From a virus: a DNA stretch of 42,748 bases. The notes under the pieces are model-generated. The model had not been told where the DNA came from and made no database searches. It saw only the letters and a list, made by a program, of their open reading frames with translations. The translations under genes were made by a program, and so were the position numbers. This document shows positions 7,162 to 25,363 of the stretch, piece after piece; position 1 is the first letter of the stretch; each line of letters begins with the position of its first letter. The stretch spans positions 1 through 42,748 of the IMG/VR virus record IMGVR_UViG_3300044957_000285. One strand, given 5' to 3'.

Positions 7162-8787
7162 TCAAAATGCCATCCATCCGTTCGTCTGAGTCGCACCGTG
7201 GACGGTGTATCGGTCGTGCAGTGTGTCCGCTGTGACGACGCGCGACGTGTCGTAGGGGTTGTCAGGCTTCGCGGGCTCGCTCCACGACGAGAAGTACGCC
7301 AAATCGGCAAAAGTCAAGGCAATGGCGTCCGACAAGTCCGAGCTGGGGATGCCTTTCGCCCGCATTTCGACCTTCGAAGTCAACAACAGGTCGTTGTCCA
7401 TGGTCGGTTTGATCGTCACAGCGGTCATGTCGGCCTGAATGTCGTCCCTGTCCGGAATTTGTACGCCTTCTTCGGACTCCAGCCACCTGTTTAGGCGCTC
7501 GTACATCTCTGCGCGGCGGTTTTTCGGTCCTGCGACCTTCGGTCGAGCGTGTTTCGCCTGACTTTTGGCCCCAAAGTTGACCATGTGGGTCACGGCCGCG
7601 TATTCCGGACCGCTTGCCTTCAGGAAATTGCCAAGATAGCGCCCGATGCCCCCGCTGTCGATGAAAACAGCAGCCGGCTTGTCGCTTCTGATGATGTCTT
7701 TGACCCACTGCAGAGCCTCTGGCTCTGTTATTTTCCTTCTGTACTCGACTTTCGTCACCCTGTGGCCCCGGCGCCACGCGATGGCAAACCTGTCGCCGCC
7801 GTCGCCGGCCGGGTCGACGCCGATGATTAACGGTCCGCTAGCCTCGACGTGGCGCTTGCGCGCGCGGAGCACGGTCAGCGGGCTGATCAGGCTCGACTTG
7901 TCGGCAGACTGAAACGCCTCGTCAGCAGTCGCCGGGTATTCCTGCTTGAACTTGCCGACGGAGCCCAGCTCCTGAATTTTGTAGCGGCGCCAGCACATCT
8001 GTTCGAGGTCCAGTTCGAACGTTTTGGCGTACTCAACTTCCGACATTTCGCCTTCGTCAGCCAAGTCGCTGAGTTCGAAGTGCTCCGGCAGCTCGCGCCG
8101 GTATTCCGGCGACCAAAACCACGGAATGAACACCGCGATGTAGTCGCCGACGCCGGCGACGGCGTCTTGCCACTTCTTCCAAAACTCGCCTGAGGGGCCG
8201 TTTGCAGTGCTCTCCAGCACCACTTCGGTTCCCGGCAGCAGCGCGACCGTTTGGACCGACGACGCAAAGTGCTCGGTGTCGCTTTTCCAGTAGGCGACCT
8301 CCGATCCATGGAACAACGTGTTGTTTTGGCCACGTCCGACGCCCTTGGAGCCCGCCGTCGCGACGACGTATTTTGACCCCATTTTGTCGAACACCAACTC
8401 CTTGACGTTGGAGCGGCCCGTGGACGGCGCGAGCGGGTTCAGCCGATGGTACCTGTCGACCATCTGGAACAGCGCGTCAGCCGACGTCTGCTCGTGCGAG
8501 AGGATGAACGCGTGCTGGTTCTTCCAAAGCGACGTGCGCCAGTAGAAACGCCCCTCCACGTAGGTCGAGCAGCCCTGCTGGCGGGCCTTGAGCACCAGCG
8601 CCCGGACGTAGCCCTTCTCCGCCCGCTGGCGCTCCAGCGCGTCGTGGATGTGCTTCTGCGCTGCGTTCATGCGGAACGGCACGATCTCTGAGGCTTTGTC
8701 GCGCAGTTTCAGGCACTGCGAGGCGAAAGTCTCGAAGTCGGTGCGGTAGAGCTTCGCGCGCTCGACGGCTGCGTCAACCTTAGCCAT
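7162..8787 (-). CDS. terL: Terminase large subunit
   Basis: I place the start at ATG 8787 (MAKVDAAVERAKLYR), which overlaps the stop of the small upstream gene, giving 541 residues; the frame is open further upstream but without support. The ATPase half carries the terminase-type Walker A variant ARQQGCST (residues 68-75), a GSEVAYW segment (161-167) and VVLESTANG (189-197). The nuclease half has IIGVDPAGDGGDRFAIAW (about 321-338), AAVFIDSGG and a late Asp-containing SDLSDAIALTFADL, the acidic residues of an RNase H-like headful nuclease. It cuts and pumps DNA into the procapsid. The neighbouring portal and P22-like head genes agree. Confidence 0.93.
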   Translation of the reverse strand: MAKVDAAVERAKLYRTDFETFASQCLKLRDKASEIVPFRMNAAQKHIHDALERQRAEKGYVRALVLKARQQGCSTYVEGRFYWRTSLWKNQHAFILSHEQTSADALFQMVDRYHRLNPLAPSTGRSNVKELVFDKMGSKYVVATAGSKGVGRGQNNTLFHGSEVAYWKSDTEHFASSVQTVALLPGTEVVLESTANGPSGEFWKKWQDAVAGVGDYIAVFIPWFWSPEYRRELPEHFELSDLADEGEMSEVEYAKTFELDLEQMCWRRYKIQELGSVGKFKQEYPATADEAFQSADKSSLISPLTVLRARKRHVEASGPLIIGVDPAGDGGDRFAIAWRRGHRVTKVEYRRKITEPEALQWVKDIIRSDKPAAVFIDSGGIGRYLGNFLKASGPEYAAVTHMVNFGAKSQAKHARPKVAGPKNRRAEMYERLNRWLESEEGVQIPDRDDIQADMTAVTIKPTMDNDLLLTSKVEMRAKGIPSSDLSDAIALTFADLAYFSSWSEPAKPDNPYDTSRVVTADTLHDRYTVHGATQTNGWMAF

Positions 8788-9007
8788 TAAAAAACACCAC
8801 GGCGCCGGTCGCAATGTCGGGTCGGTTCAGGAGTTCGGCCATGTTCTCGAAGCGCTCGAACTTGCGTGTGTCCATGAACAGCACCGCGTCTTCGACTTTG
8901 CCGTTCCACGCGTACCAGTAAGCGTCGTCAGGCGCTTTTTCCAGCGGCGCGCAGAAGATTTTACCGAAGTGGGCGGCGAGATCGGCGTAGTCGTCTTGAG
9001 ATGTCAT
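8780..9007 (-). CDS. Small unknown protein coupled to terminase
   Basis: The 75-residue protein MTSQDDYADLAAHFGKIFC... ends in VVFFNG with its TAA overlapping the ATG of the large terminase by eight bases, so the two are probably translationally coupled. Many Asp, Glu and aromatic residues; no HTH or known motif seen. A GAGGT ribosome site precedes the start and lies within one copy of an 11-base direct repeat. Position before terL might suggest a small terminase subunit, but it is too short and has no DNA-binding segment, so I leave the function open. Confidence 0.55.
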   Translation of the reverse strand: MTSQDDYADLAAHFGKIFCAPLEKAPDDAYWYAWNGKVEDAVLFMDTRKFERFENMAELLNRPDIATGAVVFFNG

Positions 9008-11455: not shown

Positions 11456-11582
11456 CGCGCGCGGGCGCGCGATCTTTTGTGGACCACTAGTTCAACAACA
11501 ATATATGTATGAAAGAAAGAACCAATATACTGTTTATTGTTGTCGATCACCTAGGCCAGAAAAGATCGCGCGCCCGCGCGCG
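11456..11582. repeat. Long inverted repeat around AT-rich core; replication origin candidate
   Basis: The arms 11456-11478 and 11560-11582 are perfect 23-base inverted copies, extending to 27 bases with one mismatch (11456-11482 and 11556-11582). Each arm is an alternating CG tract (Z-DNA-prone) ending in GATCTTTT/AAAAGATC. The 81-base centre is AT-rich and contains a second, nested inverted repeat, ACAACAATA (11495-11503) with TATTGTTGT (11535-11543). The structure lies in the non-coding divergence region and all genes point away from it. This fits a replication origin or a bidirectional control element; a large cruciform is possible. The repeat itself is certain, its role is inference. Confidence 0.7.
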
Positions 11583-13316: not shown

Positions 13317-13526
13317 ATGAGCGACCAAGCCAACGAAGCATCCGAGGCGCCCAAAGCCGGCCGCGACGACCACGCCGTGCGCCTGTATGGCGTCGCAGCG
13401 GAACACGGCTTCAACTGGCGCATCGAGTATCAGGATTGGTTCATCCCGTGGACTGACATCGAAGTGTCCCCGGAAGTGCAGGAGGCGCTTGACTGGGCCG
13501 GCGAAACCCTCGCGGGCGAGGGCTGA
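13317..13526 (+). CDS. Small acidic protein upstream of the AAA+ gene
   Basis: The 69-residue protein MSDQANEASEAPKAGRDDHA... begins after a strong AGGAG site and ends three bases before the AAA+ ATPase gene. It is strongly acidic, with a Trp-rich centre (FNWRIEYQDWFIPWTDIE) that looks folded. The close spacing suggests it is made with the AAA+/vWA/SprT-like block. DNA-mimic inhibitors are small and acidic, but nothing beyond charge supports that here. Confidence 0.6.
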   Translation: MSDQANEASEAPKAGRDDHAVRLYGVAAEHGFNWRIEYQDWFIPWTDIEVSPEVQEALDWAGETLAGEG

Positions 13527-13528
13527 TC

Positions 13529-14872
13529 ATGACACGCACAAACACCATGCGCGGCGCCTCAAGGCTTATGAACATCGAGACTGTCGAAAACGCCGCCGGC
13601 TTCCGAACCTATCTGGTCACGGGCGACACATACGCCCATCGGTTCAAATTCGGGAGGCTCGGCGGGCGCTGGCAACAGTCCCCTAAGGGCTGGTCGTTCC
13701 CTGACAACGCAGCGACCATGCAGGCCGTCGAGATCATCGTGCGCGAGCACAACGCCGGCGCCGGGCAGGGCGCCAATCAAGACGACGCTGGCGCCGCAGA
13801 GCGCACCACGGGGCGTTTCAAACTGAAAGCGGACGACGCCAGAGAGACCATGGGCGCCGACTGGTCTGGCAAATGGTTGGAGTTTCGCGACCAGTTGCTT
13901 GAGGACGCGCGTGCAGCGAACCCACCGACGCCAAACACGCCTGTGCCCGCCGCGCCTACGTCAGATGCTCAAGTCGACTGGGGCCGGGTGCAGGCCATAG
14001 CCAACGGCGCCGCGACCTACCACGTCGCCCCGCTGGCCACGCAGCTTAGCGCGGCCCTTGATCTGGTCGCCTCGCTCCAGAGCGAAGTCATCGCCCTCAA
14101 GGAAGCGGCGCCGACCGTTGTCGAGCTACGCGAGGAGGGCAAGCCAACGAAGACCCTCAAGGGCGCCGCACACAAACAGCTTCCCGATTTGATCCGCGCG
14201 TTGTCGTGTAAGCGCAACGTGTGGCTGGCTGGTCCGTCCGGATCGGGCAAGACGCACGCGGCCGAGCAAGCAGCGGAGGCGTTGGGGCTCACCTTCGGCC
14301 TGCACGGGGCTATGACCATGCCGCACGAACTGGTCGGGTTCGTCGACGCGTCTGGTCGGTACCACACAACGCCATTCGTCCGCGCGTTTACAGAGGGCGG
14401 CTTGGTGTTGCTCGATGAGATCGACGCAGGCTCCAACGAAGCGTTGCTCGCCCTTAACGCTGCGCTGGCGAACGCGATCATGTGTCTGCCCTCTGGGGAC
14501 GTGGTGCGCCGACATGACAACTTCCGGTGCATCGGCGCCGCCAACACCTTCGGGCAGGGCGCGACGGCCGAGTATGTGGGCCGCAACCGGATCGATGCGG
14601 CGTTCCTACAGCGCTTCGGCGCCCGCATCCGCTGGGGCTATGACAACGCCATGGAACTGGCCATGTGCATGAACAAGGATTGGGTGAAGCGCGTTCAGAA
14701 GGCCCGCAAAACAGTGGAGAAAGCGGGCATAAAAGTCCTGATCACGCCCCGCGCCAGCCTAGACGGCGAAGCCCTGATCGCAGCCGGGTTCACGCCCGAT
14801 CAAGCGGCCGAGATGACTTATCTCGCAGGGCTCACGCCCGAACAGGTGCGTACGGTCGAAGGTACGCCATGA
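13529..14872 (+). CDS. AAA+ ATPase of the MoxR/CobS type
   Basis: The 447-residue protein has an N-terminal module (residues about 25-72) with GGRWQQSPKGWSFP, a disordered A/P-rich linker (125-145), a helical region, and an AAA+ core. Visible motifs are Walker A AGPSGSGKTH (234-243), Walker B GGLVLLDEIDA (290-300), sensor 1 GAAN (336-339) and an arginine-containing AFLQRFGARI (358-367). Sequences after Walker A (HGAMTMPHELVGFVD) resemble the CobS/MoxR group found in many phages. MoxR ATPases remodel partner proteins with vWA-domain cofactors, and the next gene is vWA-like and overlaps this stop (ATGA). Probable role: a chaperone-like motor acting with the next two proteins. Annotation as cobalamin CobS would be misleading, since no cobalamin genes are present. 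Confidence 0.85.
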   Translation: MTRTNTMRGASRLMNIETVENAAGFRTYLVTGDTYAHRFKFGRLGGRWQQSPKGWSFPDNAATMQAVEIIVREHNAGAGQGANQDDAGAAERTTGRFKLKADDARETMGADWSGKWLEFRDQLLEDARAANPPTPNTPVPAAPTSDAQVDWGRVQAIANGAATYHVAPLATQLSAALDLVASLQSEVIALKEAAPTVVELREEGKPTKTLKGAAHKQLPDLIRALSCKRNVWLAGPSGSGKTHAAEQAAEALGLTFGLHGAMTMPHELVGFVDASGRYHTTPFVRAFTEGGLVLLDEIDAGSNEALLALNAALANAIMCLPSGDVVRRHDNFRCIGAANTFGQGATAEYVGRNRIDAAFLQRFGARIRWGYDNAMELAMCMNKDWVKRVQKARKTVEKAGIKVLITPRASLDGEALIAAGFTPDQAAEMTYLAGLTPEQVRTVEGTP

Positions 14873-15777
14873 TCCGGCAGGCGAATAAACACATAAAGGG
14901 ACTGACCGGCGCGTCTGTCACTGCGCACGCCGACAACCTGACGGACGTGCACGACTGGTTGCGCGACGCCAAGGCCAGCCGCATGCCCAAAGACTCGCCC
15001 GCGTGGTCCGGCATGCTGCACGGCGACACCAAGTCGGTTCCGCGCGCCGAGAGGCTTATGGACAAGATCGCAGCGGAGACGCTGCTTAGGGTGCACCAGA
15101 AACGCGCCGTTGCGTCGCCTGTGGGCTCGCTGGCGTGCGTTCCCGACTATCTGGCGGGCTCCCCTACCCCGATGCGCTTGCGTCGCCCTACGCCCTCGCC
15201 AGCCCCGATTACGCTGGTTCTGGACATCACCACGTCTGCGGCCATCCCGAAGGAAGTGATCGCTACACGCGGCGCCGCGACGCTCGCGCTGGTCCAGTTG
15301 CTGATCCAAGCCGGCCACGCTGTCCAACTTATGGCGGGTTTCGCTGCGCAGCCCGATCTGGCGCTTAGGACAGGCAACAGCAACGTGCTGTTTTCCGTGA
15401 CCATGGAGAGCGCACCCCTTGACATTGCGCGCGCTGCTTGGACGCTCACCAGCGAGGAGGCGCAGCGCCACATGTGCTTCGCTGCGGGATATGAGGTTTC
15501 CGCGCCCGGCAGCTACGGACACAACATATTCTGGCCAAAAACGCCTGCAAAAGCCCGCGATTGGGTTGACACAGAGGGCGCGAACATGCCTCTACAGCGC
15601 TCCGCATGGGCGCAGGCGCTGGACTTGCCAGAGTCTGGACTGCTTGTGATACCTCCTCTTTTTGGGTACCACAAAAAGCATTATGAAAGCTTCCTGACGG
15701 ACGCGGGCGCCGCCGATTGGGTAACCGCACGCTATGCTGAAATCCTAGCTCTTGAGAAAAAGGACGACTGGTCATGA
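14869..15777 (+). CDS. vWA-like partner of the AAA+ ATPase
   Basis: The 302-residue protein starts at ATG 14869 inside the stop of the AAA+ gene; a longer frame exists upstream but would overlap that gene by over 200 bases. Residues 113-158 look like the beginning of a vWA/Rossmann fold: strand ITLVLDI, MIDAS-like D119-x-T121-x-S123, helix GAATLALVQLLIQAGH, strand AVQLMAGF. A DxTxS in place of DxSxS could still hold a metal. The N-terminal 100 residues are helical with a basic region, like CobT-type partners. Together with the neighbour it makes a MoxR-vWA pair. The fold is inferred by pattern only. Confidence 0.6.
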   Translation: MIRQANKHIKGLTGASVTAHADNLTDVHDWLRDAKASRMPKDSPAWSGMLHGDTKSVPRAERLMDKIAAETLLRVHQKRAVASPVGSLACVPDYLAGSPTPMRLRRPTPSPAPITLVLDITTSAAIPKEVIATRGAATLALVQLLIQAGHAVQLMAGFAAQPDLALRTGNSNVLFSVTMESAPLDIARAAWTLTSEEAQRHMCFAAGYEVSAPGSYGHNIFWPKTPAKARDWVDTEGANMPLQRSAWAQALDLPESGLLVIPPLFGYHKKHYESFLTDAGAADWVTARYAEILALEKKDDWS

Positions 15778-16457
15778 ACGTTGATACCCCGACCCTCATG
15801 CAGTATGCGCATTTCGAAGAGGCGTACGCAGCGCTTAACCTTGACCTGTTTCAGGGCCAGCTTCCTGACGTGATGCTGACGGTCGCCCCGTCCCGGCATG
15901 AGACGTCCTACATGCGCTACGACATATTCCAAGAGCGGCCAACAGAAGCAGGCGACTACTACAACGGTGGCGAGGAAGCCAAGAAATACGCAGAAATCGG
16001 CATCAACGCACGCATGCTGTCGAAGTGGGACGAAGCTACCACGCTGCGCATCTTGATCGTTGAAATGATCCGCCTTGCGGAGGCTATCGCAGGCCGGCCG
16101 ACTACGAATAGGTACGTCACCAAAGCCATGCGTGACCGCGCGTATGCGATTGGTCTTTCCGAAAGCGACAGCGCCGTAGGCGGCTGGTTCGCTGCTGGCG
16201 GCTCGCTCGCACACAGGGCTATCGCCAGCCTCATCGAGTCGGGCTGGCGCGTGCGCTACGCGGCCGAGGGCGCCAAGGAAGGCGGAGCCGGCGAAGCGAC
16301 CAAGAGCAGGTCCAGCAAGGTGCGCTATGTGTGTCCTGTCACCGGAGTTAAAGTCTGGGGCCGATCCGGGTTGCTGCTGTACACACACGAAGGCTCAATT
16401 CTTGAATGCCGTATGCTGGAAGGAGAACAGGGAAACGAACAGGAGGAGAGCGAATGA
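15774..16457 (+). CDS. SprT-like protein lacking the zinc protease site
   Basis: The 227-residue protein begins at ATG 15774, overlapping the vWA-like stop. The layout follows SprT/Spartan-like phage proteins: an N-terminal helix-strand region with LFQGQLPDVMLTVA, EIGINARML, a helix that normally holds HExxH, then RDRAYAIGLSESDSAVGG, and a C-terminal zinc-ribbon-like end (RYVCPVTGVKVWGRSGLLLY...ECRM). Here the helix reads LRILIVEMIRLAEAI: V96-E97-M98-I99-R100 stands where HExxH should be, so both histidines are missing, and the ribbon has lost at least one cysteine. This suggests a catalytically dead protein kept for binding. SprT relationship is by pattern, moderate certainty. Confidence 0.55.
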   Translation: MNVDTPTLMQYAHFEEAYAALNLDLFQGQLPDVMLTVAPSRHETSYMRYDIFQERPTEAGDYYNGGEEAKKYAEIGINARMLSKWDEATTLRILIVEMIRLAEAIAGRPTTNRYVTKAMRDRAYAIGLSESDSAVGGWFAAGGSLAHRAIASLIESGWRVRYAAEGAKEGGAGEATKSRSSKVRYVCPVTGVKVWGRSGLLLYTHEGSILECRMLEGEQGNEQEESE

Positions 16458-16900
16458 GAACCTACGGACCTACGCTGTTGAACGCGTCGTTGCTTGATCA
16501 GGCGTTGGCGCCCGCCATGGGCCTTGCGCTGGCGCAAGAGCGACACTCGACCGAGCAGACACGAGCCTACCTTACGGACACCTATGTGGTGTTCTTCGGG
16601 CTGGAGCCGAGCGCGCACAAGCGCTTGTCCAATTGGATTGCGTTCCGCCGGAACAACATCTTCCACCAAGCCGGCGGGACGCCCTTCCCGGACGACTCAG
16701 ACACGCTGGGGTGCGTCAAGCACATGATGTTCGCCTACAGCATTGGCGACGAACCAGAGCGTCACGACAGCGACGACGACCGACCAGCCATCAAGTTCCC
16801 GTCGTCCAACGGCGCCGAGCGGGTCATCGCCATGGACATCTGCGAAACGCTGGTGCTGCGCGGCGTCAAGTGTCAGCTTGTCATTCACCCGCTGGACTGA
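16454..16900 (+). CDS. Unknown protein in the AAA+/vWA block
   Basis: The 148-residue protein MRTYGPTLLNASLLDQALA... starts with ATG overlapping the preceding TGA. It appears globular: a helical N-terminus, a central strand-turn region with YLTDTYVVFFGLEPS, an acidic loop (EPERHDSDDDRP) and C-terminal strands (MDICETLVLRGVKCQLVIHP). No known motif. Overlapping translation with three upstream genes indicates shared regulation and perhaps a shared complex. Confidence 0.6.
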   Translation: MRTYGPTLLNASLLDQALAPAMGLALAQERHSTEQTRAYLTDTYVVFFGLEPSAHKRLSNWIAFRRNNIFHQAGGTPFPDDSDTLGCVKHMMFAYSIGDEPERHDSDDDRPAIKFPSSNGAERVIAMDICETLVLRGVKCQLVIHPLD

Positions 16901-16901
16901 C

Positions 16902-17318
16902 ATGCGCGAGACAATTGCGGTACCGCAAGGAGCTATTAAAGGGACGTTCACTAAGAGCAACCCTGCGCACGTCCGTGCGCGCGCACAAGCCATAGCGGAC
17001 ATGGCCGACGCAGGGTACACTCGTGCGGAGATCGCCAAGGCGCTTAACGTTAGCAAGCCCATGCTGTGCATGTGGGCGCGGCGCGAGAACATGCAGGAGC
17101 TGCACGACAAGGTCAAAGACATCCGCGACCCGCGCGCGTTCAACTACGAGAAAGTCAAAAGCAGGTTGCGCGACTTGATCGTTGCAAAAGAGAACGGCAT
17201 GACTCGCACGGAAGTAGCCCGTGCATGGGGCGTGTCGCCTGCGGCTGTAACGCAGTGGGTAAAGCGGAACGCGCCAGACGGCGTGGAAGACGCATATTCT
17301 GATTACATGGAGGACTGA
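16902..17318 (+). CDS. Double helix-turn-helix DNA-binding protein
   Basis: The 138-residue protein starts at ATG 16902, one base after the preceding stop. Two HTH-like segments are visible: YTRAEIAKALNVSKPMLCMW (residues 39-58) and MTRTEVARAWGVSPAAVTQW (100-119), the same pattern repeated, separated by about 40 residues. This resembles Xre/Fis-like or transposase-type HTH pairs. It may regulate phage transcription, or bind an origin. It is the only clear regulator candidate on the plus strand and is the likely partner for the operator-like inverted repeat at 11693-11710, but this is inference. Confidence 0.7.
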   Translation: MRETIAVPQGAIKGTFTKSNPAHVRARAQAIADMADAGYTRAEIAKALNVSKPMLCMWARRENMQELHDKVKDIRDPRAFNYEKVKSRLRDLIVAKENGMTRTEVARAWGVSPAAVTQWVKRNAPDGVEDAYSDYMED

Positions 17319-18264: not shown

Positions 18265-18534
18265 ATGACTTTCCAAGAAGCATTGCGGCTTCTATTGCCG
18301 GGTTGGCGTGAAAAGAAGTTGAGCGCCGCCGACACAGACACAGTGGTCAAGAACTACGCCCGGCTGATCCGGGAACACCACCCCGACATGGGCAAGCCCG
18401 GCAACCCGAAGGCGCTGGAAGCGCTGCAGCAAGCCAAAAGGTTCCTCATGGACAGGATCATCAAGAATGCCAACAGACCGCGCCGACGCCTGCCCCCGAC
18501 AGGCGCCAAACCCCGCTGGATAAGCAAACGCTAG
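18265..18534 (+). CDS. J-domain (DnaJ-like) protein
   Basis: The 89-residue protein contains the helix II-loop-helix III of a J-domain: YARLIREHHPDMGKPGNPK with the diagnostic HPD at residues 39-41, followed by ALEALQQAKRFLMDRI. The C-terminus is basic (RPRRRLPPTGAKPRW). J-proteins recruit and stimulate the host DnaK chaperone. It immediately precedes the primase-helicase, so it may help assemble or disassemble the replication complex, as lambda replication uses host DnaJ/DnaK. A short J-domain without extra domains occurs in many phages. Confidence 0.78.
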   Translation: MTFQEALRLLLPGWREKKLSAADTDTVVKNYARLIREHHPDMGKPGNPKALEALQQAKRFLMDRIIKNANRPRRRLPPTGAKPRWISKR

Positions 18535-18543
18535 GTAAGCGCT

Positions 18544-20808
18544 GTGGCTAGTCGAACAGAAGCACTTGCGCTCGCGGATCTTGCGCGAAGCGGGATCACC
18601 CGTCAGATGGCGGACAATGCCGGCATCTATTGGGTCGAGGACGCCTCGCTGGTGTACCCGGACTTCAAGCGCCAGCCCGCGTCCGTGCTCCCCTACTACC
18701 ACCCGACCAAGGCCGACGCAGACGGCATGGCGGAGCCTATCTACTTCGAACGCGACGGGGAGAAGACGCAGTTCGTCCGGGTGCGCTACCTGACTGACGA
18801 CGAGTTGAAGATGAGCGGTTCGAAGCGCCACCGCTACACGCAGCCGGGCGGCTCTGGCGTCCACGCCTACTTCTCCCCGCAAATCGACTGGCGGACGCTG
18901 GCGGCCGACACGGCGTCGCCGATCATCATCACGGAAGGCGAGAAGAAAGCGCTGGCGGCCTGCGAGCTGGGCTATCCCGTGATCGGTCTGGGAGGGGTGT
19001 TCAACTTCAAAGACAAGGCCGACGGCAACCCGCTGCTCACGATGCTGGCGGAAGAGTTCAAGTGGAAAGGAAGACTGGTTTGTATCGTCTACGACAGCGA
19101 CTACAAGCACAACCCCGCGATCAGGATGGCCGCTTCAAAGCTGGCTGCCGAGCTTTCTCTGCGGTACGGTGCAAACGTGAGGGTTGTGAATATACCCGAC
19201 GGGCCTTTGGACGCGAAAGGCAAGCCTGCAAAACAGGGCTTGGACGACTTCCTGCTGGCGCACGGATCGCAGGCGTTTGACGAGTTGCTGGACGCCGCGA
19301 TGGAGATGCGCTCGGCCGACGCGGAGGTGCTGCTGCTGAACTCGTGCCTCGCGTACATCGAGTGCGACGACATGATCTACGACTTCAAAACGCGCGGGTT
19401 TCTGAGCAAGGGCGCGCTCCTAGCCGGCTCAGACTACTCGAAAGACAAGGTCATGACCTACGATCCGTCGACCAACAAAATGATCGAGCGTCAGCTATCG
19501 CGCGTCTGGCTCACGCATGAGAACCACATATCGTATCGTGACACCACGCTGGACCCGTCTACACTGGAGCGGGCGATCCCGAGGGCAGAAGGCGGCTTCA
19601 GCCTGAACTTGTGGGAAGGACTGCCCCGCCCGGTGCAAGGCGACATCTCTCCGTTCATGCGTCTGCACGACTACGTGTTCCAGAACTGCCCCGACAGTGA
19701 CAAGCAGTTTGCTTGGAACATGCTGGCGTGGAAGGTGCAGAACCCGCACGAGATACCCCGCATCGCCATGGTGCTCATCGGGCCGCAGGGCTCTGGTAAG
19801 TCCATGTGGGCAAGTATCGCCCAGAACATGTTCGGCGCGCACGGTAAGTCCATCTACTCCGACACGTTGCTCCGCGAGTTCAACGCGTGGATGGAAAACG
19901 CGCTGTGTGTCGTGATTGACGAGGCCGAACCCGAGCACGTGGCGTCCGGCTCGCGGTTTCTCAAAAAGTACATCGCCGACAAGTCGGTCTACATGCGAGA
20001 TCTCTACCGCACCGGGCGGGAGATTACCAATCGGGCAATGTTCATCCTCACATCCAACAAGCTGGAAGTGGGCAACTACGATGAAGACGACCGCCGCATG
20101 TTCGTCATCGGTACGCCCGGCCCGCACCCGGACAAGGAGGCGTTCTACGATCCGATTGGAGAGTGGATATCTGACAACGGACCCGCCAAGCTGGCTTACG
20201 CGCTGCAGAACTACAACCTGAAGGGCTGGCGCCCTCCGGGCAGGCCGCCGATGACGGCCGAGAAGCGCATGGCTGCTGCCGAGAACCGCACGCCCATCGA
20301 GCGCGTTGGCATCGCGTTCAGGGAGGCGCAGGGCCACTCAGTCCTGCTCAACACCATCGACGTCGCATGGAACTGGTGCACCAACAACGCGGACAGCACA
20401 GACCACAAAATCAAGACCCTCGCGACCGACACCTACCGGGCGCTGGGCGGCTGGCCAATCCGTTCGTTCTACACGCCCGAGGAGCTGGCGACGATCCTGC
20501 CCGAAATCGTGGTCAAGCTAGGCTATGCGACACGTGGGTTCAAAGGTACCGCAAGCGGCCAGATCAGCAAAGAACTCCGCAAGGTCGGTAACCATTATCT
20601 GCTGTGTAAAGATCACCCCGAAGGATTTTTGTGGCGCGGGACGCGAAACCAGTATATTGTCGTCTCAGATCACGCCGAGCTGACGGCGCCGATTTCGCAA
20701 GCCGACTTCGAACGTCTTATGCAGAACGTCCAGACCTACGGCGAGCTGCGACTGAAAACCAGTTCGGTCCAGCCCCTGCTGGTCCGCAAGCAAGGAGAGA
20801 AAAGATGA
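18544..20808 (+). CDS. Replicative primase-helicase (toprim-like plus SF3/DUF5906)
   Basis: The 754-residue protein starts with GTG at 18544. The N-terminal half is a DUF3854-type toprim-like module: PIIITEGEKKALAACELGYP (residues 126-145), GLGG, IVYDSD (181-186) and KQGLDDFLLAHG. The C-terminal half is a virus-type superfamily 3 helicase: Walker A IGPQGSGKS (412-420), Walker B LCVVIDEAEPE (454-464), and sensor-like NRAMFILTSN. It would make primers and unwind DNA at the fork. It ends with TGA inside the ATG of the next gene. Toprim catalytic residues E131, D184 and D186 are present. The C-terminal 150 residues are probably a DNA-binding winged region. Confidence 0.88.
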   Translation: MASRTEALALADLARSGITRQMADNAGIYWVEDASLVYPDFKRQPASVLPYYHPTKADADGMAEPIYFERDGEKTQFVRVRYLTDDELKMSGSKRHRYTQPGGSGVHAYFSPQIDWRTLAADTASPIIITEGEKKALAACELGYPVIGLGGVFNFKDKADGNPLLTMLAEEFKWKGRLVCIVYDSDYKHNPAIRMAASKLAAELSLRYGANVRVVNIPDGPLDAKGKPAKQGLDDFLLAHGSQAFDELLDAAMEMRSADAEVLLLNSCLAYIECDDMIYDFKTRGFLSKGALLAGSDYSKDKVMTYDPSTNKMIERQLSRVWLTHENHISYRDTTLDPSTLERAIPRAEGGFSLNLWEGLPRPVQGDISPFMRLHDYVFQNCPDSDKQFAWNMLAWKVQNPHEIPRIAMVLIGPQGSGKSMWASIAQNMFGAHGKSIYSDTLLREFNAWMENALCVVIDEAEPEHVASGSRFLKKYIADKSVYMRDLYRTGREITNRAMFILTSNKLEVGNYDEDDRRMFVIGTPGPHPDKEAFYDPIGEWISDNGPAKLAYALQNYNLKGWRPPGRPPMTAEKRMAAAENRTPIERVGIAFREAQGHSVLLNTIDVAWNWCTNNADSTDHKIKTLATDTYRALGGWPIRSFYTPEELATILPEIVVKLGYATRGFKGTASGQISKELRKVGNHYLLCKDHPEGFLWRGTRNQYIVVSDHAELTAPISQADFERLMQNVQTYGELRLKTSSVQPLLVRKQGEKR

Positions 20809-22906: not shown

Positions 22907-24783
22907 TGCTCGCGGTCATCGACTTCGAGACGCATTCGGTGACGGATGACGTCGCATGGGCTCCGCCTGAACCTACCGGGTTGGCCATACGGCTGCCCGG
23001 TAGGCAGGAGCGCTATTTGCGCTGGAACCACCCCAATGGGAACAACACGACGCGGAAAGCCGTCGCCGCGCTGCTGAAGCACCTGTGGGAGTCCGACTTC
23101 GAGCTGCTGTTCCACAACGCGAAGTTCGACCTCGCCGTGGCGCGAGCGCACTTTGGGTTGGAAGTCCCGCACTGGTCCAGAATACATGACACCATGTTTC
23201 TGGCGTACCTCTACAATCCGCACGCCTTCCAACTGGGCCTGAAAGAGCTCGCCCGTGATCTGCTCGGTATGGAGCCTGAAGAACGGGACACCGTCAGCGA
23301 CTGGCTCTGGACCTACCGCGCGAAGGTGTACGAAAAGACCGGGCGTCGCCTGTCGCGCACCAAGGGCCGTGTGGGCCGCGCCGGCGAGTTCTACTGGCTG
23401 GTCCCCGGCGACGTGCTGGAGCCCTACGCCTGCGGCGACGTGCGCCGCACGGAGGCCCTGTTCAACGCGCTGGCTCCAGAGATCAAGCTGCAAGGCATGT
23501 GGGGCGCCTACAACCGAGAGCGTCAGCTCCTCCCGATCCTGATGGAGAACGAGCGGCTGGGCATCTGTGTCGACGTCCCCGCGCTGGAGAACGACATTCC
23601 TGCATATCAGGACGCGTTCATAGTTGCCGAGAAGTGGCTCCGGGACCGTCTCGACGCGCCGGGCCTCAACTTCGACGCCGACCGGGACGTTGGAGCGGCC
23701 CTCCAGCGCGCCGGTGTGCTCTGTGGTGAGCTTAAGCACGGCAAGCTAGGGTACCTGTCGGTCAGCAAGGAAAACCTCACTGCAGCGAATTTCAGCGACG
23801 CTGACGTGTTCCTCGCGTTGGGCTACCGCAACCGCCTGAAGACCTGCATGGAGATGTTCATGCTCCCGTGGCTGGCGCAAGCCAAGCGGCGGGGCGACGG
23901 CAGGATCAGCACGAACTGGAACCAGACGCGCGGCGGGGACGGCGGCACGCGCACCGGGCGCCCGTCCACGACGAACCCGAACCTGCTGAACATCAGCAAG
24001 GACTTCGAAGGCCGCCCGGATGGCTACACGCACCCCGAGTTTCTGGGTGTCCCCAAGCTGCCGCTGGTCCGCAAGTACGTGACGGCCGACGAGGGTCACG
24101 TGTTCGTCGACTTCGACTTCAACGGTCAGGAGCTGCGGGTCTTCGCACACTTCGAGAGCGGCAAGCTCTATCGCGCGTACCACGAAAATCCGAAGATCGA
24201 CGTGCACCAGATGGTCGCGGACGACATCAAGCGCATCTCGCCGACGACGAAGCTCGACCGGATGAAGACCAAGATCATCAACTTCCGCTCGATCTACGGC
24301 TCCGGCGTCCGGGGCGTGGCGCAGTCCCTCAACTGCGACTACGAAACCGCCAAGGAGTTCAAGCGCGTTCACTCGCAGGCGCTGCCCGGACTGGCCGTGC
24401 TGAACAACGAGATCAAGCGCATGGTCGCGCTTGGCGAGCCCATCGTCACGTGGGGCGGGCGCCGGTACTTCCCGGAAGAGCCGAAGATGGACGAGGAGAC
24501 GGGCGAGAAGCGCACGTTCGAATACAAGCTGATCAACTACCTGATCCAAGGCTCAGCCGCCGACCTTACGAAGCAGGCGATCATCGACTGGTACAACCAC
24601 CCCAACCGTGATCCGCGCACGCGTCTGCTGGTCACGGTCTACGACGAGATCGCCATAAGCTGTCCGCCGGATGTGCTTGACGAGCAATCGGCGCTGCTCA
24701 AGGAAGTAATGGAATGGGATAGGCTGGATGTGCCCATGTTGGCTGACGGGGCCAGCGGGGCTAACTGGGCTGAGGCTAAGTGA
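22906..24783 (+). CDS. Family A DNA polymerase with 3'-5' exonuclease
   Basis: The 625-residue protein starts with GTG at 22906. Exonuclease motifs: Exo I VIDFETH (D6, E8), Exo II FHNAKFDLAV, Exo III YACGDVRRTEAL. Polymerase motifs: A FVDFDFNGQELRVFAHF (catalytic Asp), B RMKTKIINFRSIYGSG, C VTVYDEIAIS (VYDE in place of VHDE). No 5'-nuclease domain, as in T7-like phage polymerases. It is the replicative polymerase and sits in the replication block after the primase-helicase. The gene ends one base before the Mom-like gene. A change of H to Y in motif C is tolerated in this family. Confidence 0.95.
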   Translation: MLAVIDFETHSVTDDVAWAPPEPTGLAIRLPGRQERYLRWNHPNGNNTTRKAVAALLKHLWESDFELLFHNAKFDLAVARAHFGLEVPHWSRIHDTMFLAYLYNPHAFQLGLKELARDLLGMEPEERDTVSDWLWTYRAKVYEKTGRRLSRTKGRVGRAGEFYWLVPGDVLEPYACGDVRRTEALFNALAPEIKLQGMWGAYNRERQLLPILMENERLGICVDVPALENDIPAYQDAFIVAEKWLRDRLDAPGLNFDADRDVGAALQRAGVLCGELKHGKLGYLSVSKENLTAANFSDADVFLALGYRNRLKTCMEMFMLPWLAQAKRRGDGRISTNWNQTRGGDGGTRTGRPSTTNPNLLNISKDFEGRPDGYTHPEFLGVPKLPLVRKYVTADEGHVFVDFDFNGQELRVFAHFESGKLYRAYHENPKIDVHQMVADDIKRISPTTKLDRMKTKIINFRSIYGSGVRGVAQSLNCDYETAKEFKRVHSQALPGLAVLNNEIKRMVALGEPIVTWGGRRYFPEEPKMDEETGEKRTFEYKLINYLIQGSAADLTKQAIIDWYNHPNRDPRTRLLVTVYDEIAISCPPDVLDEQSALLKEVMEWDRLDVPMLADGASGANWAEAK

Positions 24784-24784
24784 A

Positions 24785-25363
24785 ATGTTGAACGATAATA
24801 CTTTGCACTTGCGAGCATCTGATTACGCAGTAAAAGATGTAAAGCATTCTGTTGCCGCTGAGTTTATACGCAGACATCATTACAGTAAAGGGTGCTCCAA
24901 CACTCAAGTTTTTGGACACGGAATGTTTGACAGTGCAGGCGAGCTTAAAGGTGTCGCCATGTGGCTGCCGCCAACTCGCGTGGCAGCTGAGAGCGTAGAC
25001 CGAGAAAAATGGAAGCAAGTTCTAGCTCTCACGAGACTTGCCGTGGACGATAGCGTTCCAACCAACGGCGCGTCGTTTCTTCTTGGACGTAGTTTGAGGT
25101 TGGTTAGGTCTTCTAAAAAATGGTTGTGGGGCGTGACTTATGCCGACGAAAGCCAAGGCCACACCGGTGCGATCTACCGCGCCACTAACTGGACTTATAT
25201 AGGCCGCACAGGACCCTACCCGCGTTGGATAAGCCGTGACGGCGTACAAGTAGCGGTTAAAGCAACCACCACGCGTACAAAAGCGCAAATGGAAGAGCTT
25301 GGACACAGAGAAGTTGGGCGTTATTACAAGCACAAGTTTACCATATACTTGGGGAGGTCATGA
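24785..25363 (+). CDS. Mom-like DNA adenine modification protein
   Basis: The 192-residue protein shows the pattern of phage Mu Mom and its relatives, a GNAT-like fold: an AAEFIRRHHYSKGCSNTQVF segment (25-44) with the HHYS signature, GVAMWLPP (56-63), LALTRLAVDDSVPTNGASFL (80-99), a WLWGVTYADESQGHTGAIYR stretch (113-132), and NWTYIGRTG. Mu Mom makes N6-carbamoylmethyl adenine and shields DNA from restriction. GC is about 50% by hand count, and near 43% in the first 180 bases, against about 63% in the polymerase, so it was probably acquired recently. It ends overlapping the next start (ATGA). Mu needs Com to translate mom; no Com-like gene is seen here. Confidence 0.72.
   Translation: MLNDNTLHLRASDYAVKDVKHSVAAEFIRRHHYSKGCSNTQVFGHGMFDSAGELKGVAMWLPPTRVAAESVDREKWKQVLALTRLAVDDSVPTNGASFLLGRSLRLVRSSKKWLWGVTYADESQGHTGAIYRATNWTYIGRTGPYPRWISRDGVQVAVKATTTRTKAQMEELGHREVGRYYKHKFTIYLGRS

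What the first reader, a model, noticed from the sequence alone, without database searches (positions are those of the whole stretch)
13317..17318. Tightly coupled AAA+ (MoxR type) / vWA-like / SprT-like block: candidate undescribed system
Six genes, four of them overlapping by ATGA: acidic small protein, AAA+ ATPase with an N-terminal GGRW..GWSFP module, vWA-like partner with DxTxS, SprT-like protein without its metal site, unknown 148-residue protein, and a double-HTH protein. MoxR-vWA pairs are chaperone machines; adding a dead protease-like reader suggests a system that pulls apart DNA-bound or host protein complexes, perhaps a defence complex or DNA-protein crosslink.
Basis: partly seen in the sequence, partly recalled or inferred. 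Interest (0 to 1): 0.75.

Follow-up and report, generated by a model that had tools for sequence, protein, structure and literature searches.

The report
Phage AAA+/vWA motor with dead SprT
This phage carries a three-gene machine, an ATP-driven protein-remodelling motor, its partner protein and a protease-like subunit that has lost its zinc site; related phages carry the same trio with an intact protease, which suggests a phage version of the motor-plus-protease systems that strip proteins off DNA.

Summary
At 13317-17318 six genes lie head to tail, four of them joined by ATGA overlaps. The core is a MoxR-class AAA+ ATPase (13529-14872), a vWA-fold partner of Pfam DUF7192 (14869-15777) and an SprT-like protein (15774-16457).

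The AAA+/DUF7192 pair is a known, widespread phage pair, usually annotated "CobS/porphyrin biosynthesis": 80 of 80 fetched relatives have both genes. It scores far below the CobS equivalog cut-off (21.5 against 558.6 bits).

New here: an SprT-type zinc metallopeptidase gene lies directly beside the pair in 25 of 80 relatives, in both gene orders. The window's nearest relative (L127) has the same order with an intact HEMVH site. In the window's copy all three zinc histidines are replaced (V, R, V) and the zinc ribbon is broken; 38 of 38 aligned relatives keep the histidines.

Best reading: an early ATP-driven machine that remodels or removes DNA-bound proteins, with SprT as protease in most relatives and as a dead targeting adaptor here. 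Anatomy is shown; the target is inferred. The 69-, 148- and 138-residue neighbours are not part of the conserved core. A metallopeptidase-vWA fusion with MoxR was already described in jumbo phages, so this is a new variant.

The parts
13529..14872 (+). MoxR-class AAA+ ATPase (PHROG 249, 'CobS-like'), 447 aa; Walker A GPSGSGKT, Walker B LVLLDEID, sensor GAANTF, arginine RF; N-terminal GGRW..GWSFP module not seen in relatives
   Evidence: Pfam AAA_5 1.2e-14; PHROG 249 2.5e-58; motifs conserved in alignment A1; nearest PDB relatives midasin, CobS, CbbQ, NorQ
14869..15777 (+). vWA-fold partner, DUF7192 / phrog_1909, 302 aa, D-x-T-x-S at the MIDAS-like site
   Evidence: DUF7192 6.7e-12; phrog_1909 5.2e-16; AlphaFold model pTM 0.80 matches NorD VWA domain, E 5.8e-5
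15774..16457 (+). SprT-like pseudo-protease, 227 aa; HExxH -> VExxR, third His -> Val, zinc ribbon Cys -> Thr
   Evidence: model pLDDT 78, best PDB match SPRTN 6mdx
13317..13526 (+). 69-aa acidic protein directly upstream, with a GGAGAG Shine-Dalgarno-like site; no relatives found (not part of the conserved core)
16454..16900 (+). 148-aa protein joined by ATGA overlap; no relatives found (not part of the conserved core)
16902..17318 (+). 138-aa double helix-turn-helix protein; same operon, not part of the conserved core
   Evidence: HTH_23 5.6e-15, two stretches; no relatives beside the pair

Best explanation
The block encodes a three-subunit phage protein-remodelling machine. Shown: a MoxR-class AAA+ motor with intact ATPase motifs, a vWA-fold partner resembling NorD, and an SprT-fold subunit; the first two are a constant phage gene pair, and SprT-type genes were placed beside it repeatedly. 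Inferred: the AAA+ ring and the vWA protein grip and pull a target protein while the SprT subunit brings the machine to protein on DNA, early in infection when the phage genome is being replicated. In most relatives SprT would also cut the target, as SPRTN does with the p97 motor. In this phage the SprT subunit has lost its zinc site and would work only as a targeting or scaffold subunit, so the machine would remodel or displace its target without cutting it, or pass it to a host protease.
For: AAA+/DUF7192 pair in 80/80 relatives. SprT-type metallopeptidase directly adjacent in 25/80, upstream in 22 and downstream in 3; reciprocal: 59/63 of the upstream-type SprT genes with enough flank directly precede the ATPase, and 77/77 keep HExxH. 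About 10 of 53 ATPase clusters at 70% identity hold a trio; at least 3 gains or losses forced on the tree, best count 8. Two different SprT subfamilies beside the same pair: the A4 type and the window/L127/L049 type, plus a complete trio in the isolate genome Geminisphaera colitermitum TAV2 (L273). The window's SprT keeps the fold and an open frame between two ATGA junctions while losing every zinc histidine. DNA context: the + strand operon ahead of primase, DNA polymerase, exonuclease and helicase, opposite the packaging/head genes; 9/9 trio representatives tested lie beside a divergently transcribed large terminase; standalone phage SprT genes sit beside SSB, RecA/exonuclease or polymerase genes. 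Literature: SPRTN acts with, and recruits, the AAA+ unfoldase p97, and its protease activity needs DNA (PMC7782752).
Against: No direct evidence of a complex, of DNA binding or of any target. 55/80 pairs have no adjacent SprT, so the motor can act without it, and most SprT genes lie away from the pair. Known MoxR-vWA pairs often insert metals or activate enzymes rather than unfold DNA-bound proteins (PMC13036017). Without close relatives, purifying selection on the dead SprT could not be measured; it could be a gene in decay. The SprT model matches SPRTN only weakly (E 0.024, TM 0.36-0.44).
Confidence: 0.45

Rival explanations
1. Virion-assembly chaperone: the MoxR-vWA pair helps build head or tail, with SprT as maturation protease, as proposed for jumbo phages and for the tail of Acidianus two-tailed virus.
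For: Published proposal for MoxR + metallopeptidase-vWA fusions in jumbo phages (PMC7824862); trios lie close to terminase genes; one small ORF overlapping the phiM5 ATPase gene is noted as seen in particles.
Against: The block is transcribed away from the head and packaging genes and lies in the operon with primase, polymerase, exonuclease and helicase. The trio occurs beside terminases of unrelated families (phrog_38, 2, 979, 15), so it does not follow one virion type. A dead protease cannot process virion proteins.
Confidence: 0.2
2. Metal insertase or enzyme activator: the pair loads metal into a client enzyme, like NorQ-NorD or CobS-CobT, and SprT is a client or an accidental neighbour.
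For: Closest structural relatives are NorQ/NorD, CbbQ and CobS; NorQD inserts iron by twisting the NorD linker (PMC13036017); phage pairs have been read as cobaltochelatase subunits (PMC8651126).
Against: TIGR01650 (CobS) score 21.5 against a cut-off of 558.6, and no NCBIfam hit for the partner. The pair keeps its SprT neighbour in the window although SprT can no longer bind zinc at the usual site, so zinc loading of SprT cannot be the reason here.
Confidence: 0.2
3. The SprT-like gene is a decaying remnant and the working unit is only the AAA+/vWA pair.
For: All zinc histidines lost; long terminal branch in the SprT tree; most pairs have no adjacent SprT.
Against: Uninterrupted 227-codon frame, overlapping both neighbours by ATGA, fold-determining residues kept (166.5 bits), codon-position GC like neighbours. 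Decay would not be expected to single out all three histidines and the ribbon cysteines.
Confidence: 0.15
4. Counter-defence or host takeover: the machine pulls apart a host defence or transcription complex on phage DNA.
For: Early-operon position, patchy occurrence across unrelated phages; limited-distribution phage SprT proteases have been proposed to cut host proteins (PMC7824862).
Against: No link to a known defence family; the same pair is carried by phages of many hosts, from Staphylococcus to Mycobacterium, which fits a general role better.
Confidence: 0.1

Closest known systems
Phage CobS/CobT-like gene pairs (PHROG 249 + phrog_1909/DUF7192; PMC8651126)
   Same: Same ATPase family and same partner position; 80/80 relatives, and in Staphylococcus, Listeria, Mycobacterium, Sinorhizobium and Acinetobacter phages
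   Different: Published reading is cobaltochelatase, without an SprT subunit; the CobS equivalog model is not met here
Jumbo-phage MoxR AAA+ with vWA fused to an N-terminal metallopeptidase (PMC7824862)
   Same: Same three functions: MoxR motor, vWA partner, metallopeptidase
   Different: There one fused protein; here a separate SprT-like gene, adjacent on either side in relatives, and catalytically dead in the window
NorQ-NorD (MoxR AAA+/vWA metal-insertion complex, PMC13036017)
   Same: ATPase class and vWA fold
   Different: NorD has a linker and a metal-insertion target; no protease partner
SPRTN (DNA-protein crosslink protease) with p97 (PMC7782752)
   Same: SprT fold coupled to an AAA+ motor
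   Different: p97 is a different AAA+ type; the window's SprT lacks the catalytic site; DNA dependence untested

Membership tests
MoxR AAA+/vWA pair | AAA+ ATPase of MoxR class with intact Walker A, Walker B, sensor and arginine motifs | tested here: met
MoxR AAA+/vWA pair | vWA-fold protein encoded next to the ATPase | tested here: met
   ATGA junction; fold match to NorD VWA E 5.8e-5; 80/80 relatives
MoxR AAA+/vWA pair | MIDAS metal site in the vWA domain | tested here: inconclusive
   Window has D-x-T-x-S; the first Asp is D in 23 and N in 40 of 90 relatives
MoxR AAA+/vWA pair | Hexameric ring and physical complex | not testable with these tools
   single-chain prediction only
Cobaltochelatase CobS/CobT | CobS equivalog model TIGR01650 above cut-off | tested here: not met
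   21.5 bits against 558.55
Cobaltochelatase CobS/CobT | CobT recognised by a curated model | tested here: not met
   no NCBIfam hit for the partner
SprT metalloprotease | SprT fold | tested here: met
   profile 166.5 bits; family profile to SPRTN E 1.2e-4; model to SPRTN prob 0.96, E 0.024
SprT metalloprotease | HExxH and third zinc histidine | tested here: not met
   V-E-x-x-R and V in the window, H-E-x-x-H and H in 38/38 aligned relatives
SprT metalloprotease | C-terminal four-cysteine zinc ribbon | tested here: not met
   second and third Cys replaced by Thr
Jumbo-phage MoxR + metallopeptidase-vWA fusion (PMC7824862) | metallopeptidase fused N-terminally to the vWA protein | tested here: not met
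   separate genes
MoxR-vWA-beta-propeller ternary systems | bpMoxR model (PF20030) above cut-off | tested here: not met
   20.4 bits against 27
Known anti-phage defence systems (PADLOC) | convincing match to a component model | tested here: not met
   only marginal matches

The most novel reading that the evidence does not exclude
A phage counterpart of the p97-SPRTN system: a MoxR-type AAA+/vWA motor dedicated to stripping proteins from replicating phage DNA with an SprT protease subunit, including lineages in which the protease has become a pure targeting adaptor.
Probability: 0.3. Interest if true: 0.85.

Novelty: new variant of a known kind. Interest (0 to 1): 0.6.

Why it matters
Hundreds of phage genomes carry the 'CobS/porphyrin biosynthesis' ATPase, usually with its DUF7192 partner, and I found no tested function for the pair. 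Repeated placement of SprT proteases beside it, from two subfamilies and on either side, points to protein remodelling on DNA rather than vitamin B12, and gives the pair a directly testable function. A dead SprT in one lineage is a natural test of whether SprT is needed as a protease or as an adaptor, a question that also bears on SPRTN and p97.

Tried and rejected
Single-protein scans of viral contigs with the window's own proteins found nothing; no close relative of the window exists in the collections searched, so dN/dS was not possible. Alignment A2 and, in genome contigs, A1 were too divergent to scan with. Cobaltochelatase membership was tested and rejected; known defence systems were tested and rejected. 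The GGRW module gave no Pfam match even at E 10. A six-gene unit was rejected because the 69-, 148- and 138-aa genes have no relatives beside the pair. A cultured phage with the full trio was sought and not found: the actinophage, Dinoroseobacter, Escherichia, Pseudomonas, Burkholderia, Acinetobacter and Bordetella SprT genes examined have no adjacent pair. The promoter scan found no more than shuffled sequence, and the terminator scan little more.

Full report
Observation. AAA+ (13529-14872), vWA (14869-15777), SprT-like (15774-16457) and a 148-aa gene (16454-16900) are joined by three ATGA overlaps; the 69-aa gene ends 2 bases before the ATPase start and the double-HTH gene starts 1 base after the 148-aa gene. 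The window is a 42,748-base IMG/VR virus record with no close relative in the collections searched.

What the three core proteins are. The ATPase matches Pfam AAA_5 (1.2e-14) and PHROG 249, 'porphyrin biosynthesis' (2.5e-58); its nearest solved relatives are midasin, CobS, CbbQ and NorQ, all of the MoxR class or close to it, and its ATPase motifs are conserved in the alignment. The second protein is DUF7192 / phrog_1909. Its AlphaFold model (pTM 0.80, 41-sequence alignment) matches the VWA domain of NorD in NorQ-NorD complexes at E 5.8e-5, so the vWA reading is supported, although the first MIDAS aspartate is not conserved in the family (D 23, N 40 of 90). The third protein scores 166.5 bits against a phage SprT profile in whose seeds it was included; independently, tblastn finds it in six phage records at E 1e-4 or better, its model (pLDDT 78) matches human SPRTN best, weakly (E 0.024), and the family profile finds SPRTN at 1.2e-4.

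The dead site. In an alignment with 38 relatives every one has H-E-x-x-H, the third histidine and the first three ribbon cysteines; the window has V-E-x-x-R, V, and C-T-T. Of 92 hits of this subfamily only one other, L022, lacks HExxH, by a single change (HEMVR). The window gene is open, overlaps both neighbours by ATGA and has codon-position composition like its neighbours. Its nearest relative by tree distance is the SprT of L127, where the protein is intact (HEMVH with the CPHC ribbon motif) and lies in the same order AAA+-vWA-SprT. The simplest history is a trio in the common ancestor and metal-site loss in the window's line.

The association is real and recurring. Of 80 ATPase relatives fetched from IMG/VR, 80 have DUF7192. 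A profile built from five adjacent SprT genes showed an SprT-type gene with HExxH immediately beside the pair in 24 loci, 22 upstream and 2 downstream; with L127 this is 25/80. Conversely 59/63 of those SprT genes with enough flank directly precede the ATPase, 57 of them with DUF7192 as well, and 77/77 keep HExxH. At 70% identity the ATPases form 53 clusters, of which 10 hold a trio; on the tree the state changes about 8 times, at least 3 by well-supported branches. L049 has a divergent version in the window's order, with a different, vWA-like middle gene. A trio also lies in the isolate genome Geminisphaera colitermitum TAV2 (L273). Limits: the fetched sets are the best-scoring 80 of 541 and of 389 candidates, not a random sample; many are near-copies; and outside these close relatives most SprT genes have no pair beside them (59 of 62 loci; 79 of 80).

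Where it sits. The window's head and packaging genes (terminase 7162-8814, portal, scaffold, major head protein) and connector genes are on the - strand; the trio is on the + strand ahead of primase (18544-20808), DNA polymerase, a Mom-like gene, exonuclease, helicase and a nucleotide phosphatase. In nine of nine trio representatives tested a large terminase of one of several unrelated families is transcribed away from the trio; exonuclease, polymerase or primase genes lie downstream in several. Phage SprT genes without the pair also sit in DNA modules, next to SSB, RecA/exonuclease or DNA polymerase.

How it most likely works. The motor and vWA partner would form a NorQ-NorD-like ring that exerts force on a target; the SprT subunit would place it on DNA-bound protein. 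In eukaryotes SPRTN is both a DNA-activated protease and a recruiter of the unfoldase p97 (PMC7782752), so an SprT subunit that keeps its fold and loses its zinc site could still recruit the motor. Shown: genes, folds, motifs, association and context. Inferred: complex formation, early timing, DNA targeting, target removal.

What is known. Phage cobST pairs have been described and read as cobaltochelatase (PMC8651126); here the CobS equivalog test fails by a wide margin. A MoxR ATPase with a metallopeptidase-vWA fusion was described in jumbo phages and read as virion assembly (PMC7824862). A cyanophage relative (S-ShM2) has a 722-aa 'peptidase' gene with HEVGH near its cobS-like gene, possibly a fused form. 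I found no paper describing the split SprT gene beside the pair or the dead form; subscription literature was mostly not searchable. The result is a new variant of a known kind.

Noticed in passing
window 11456-11503 / 11535-11582: A 48-nt inverted repeat (83% complementary, 31-nt gap) with CGCGCG-rich arms lies in the gap between the divergent terminase side and the + strand operon; possible hairpin, terminator or regulatory site.
   Followed up: partly
window 24728-25363: Mom-like DNA modification protein (PHROG 1384, 1.3e-38) between DNA polymerase and exonuclease; suggests modified phage DNA.
   Followed up: no
window 18265-18534: Small DnaJ-like protein (Pfam DnaJ 4.6e-5, below cut-off) just downstream of the block and ahead of the primase; may be a co-chaperone.
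   Followed up: no
window 13568-13768 (ATPase residues ~14-80): GGRW..GWSFP module fused to the N-terminus of the ATPase in this phage only; no Pfam match; it recalls HARP-like modules from memory only.
   Followed up: partly
L022:6935-7618: Another phage SprT-like protein with a single zinc-histidine loss (HEMVR), without the AAA+/vWA pair.
   Followed up: no
L013:720-2888: Cyanophage S-ShM2 'peptidase' of 722 aa with an HEVGH motif near its cobS-like ATPase (only a glutaredoxin gene lies between); no Pfam match, possibly a fused metallopeptidase-vWA protein.
   Followed up: partly
L265-L313 (genome contigs): Many Sphingomonadales genomes carry SprT-type genes of this subfamily without the AAA+/vWA pair, some in more than one copy and several as shortened frames.
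   Followed up: no
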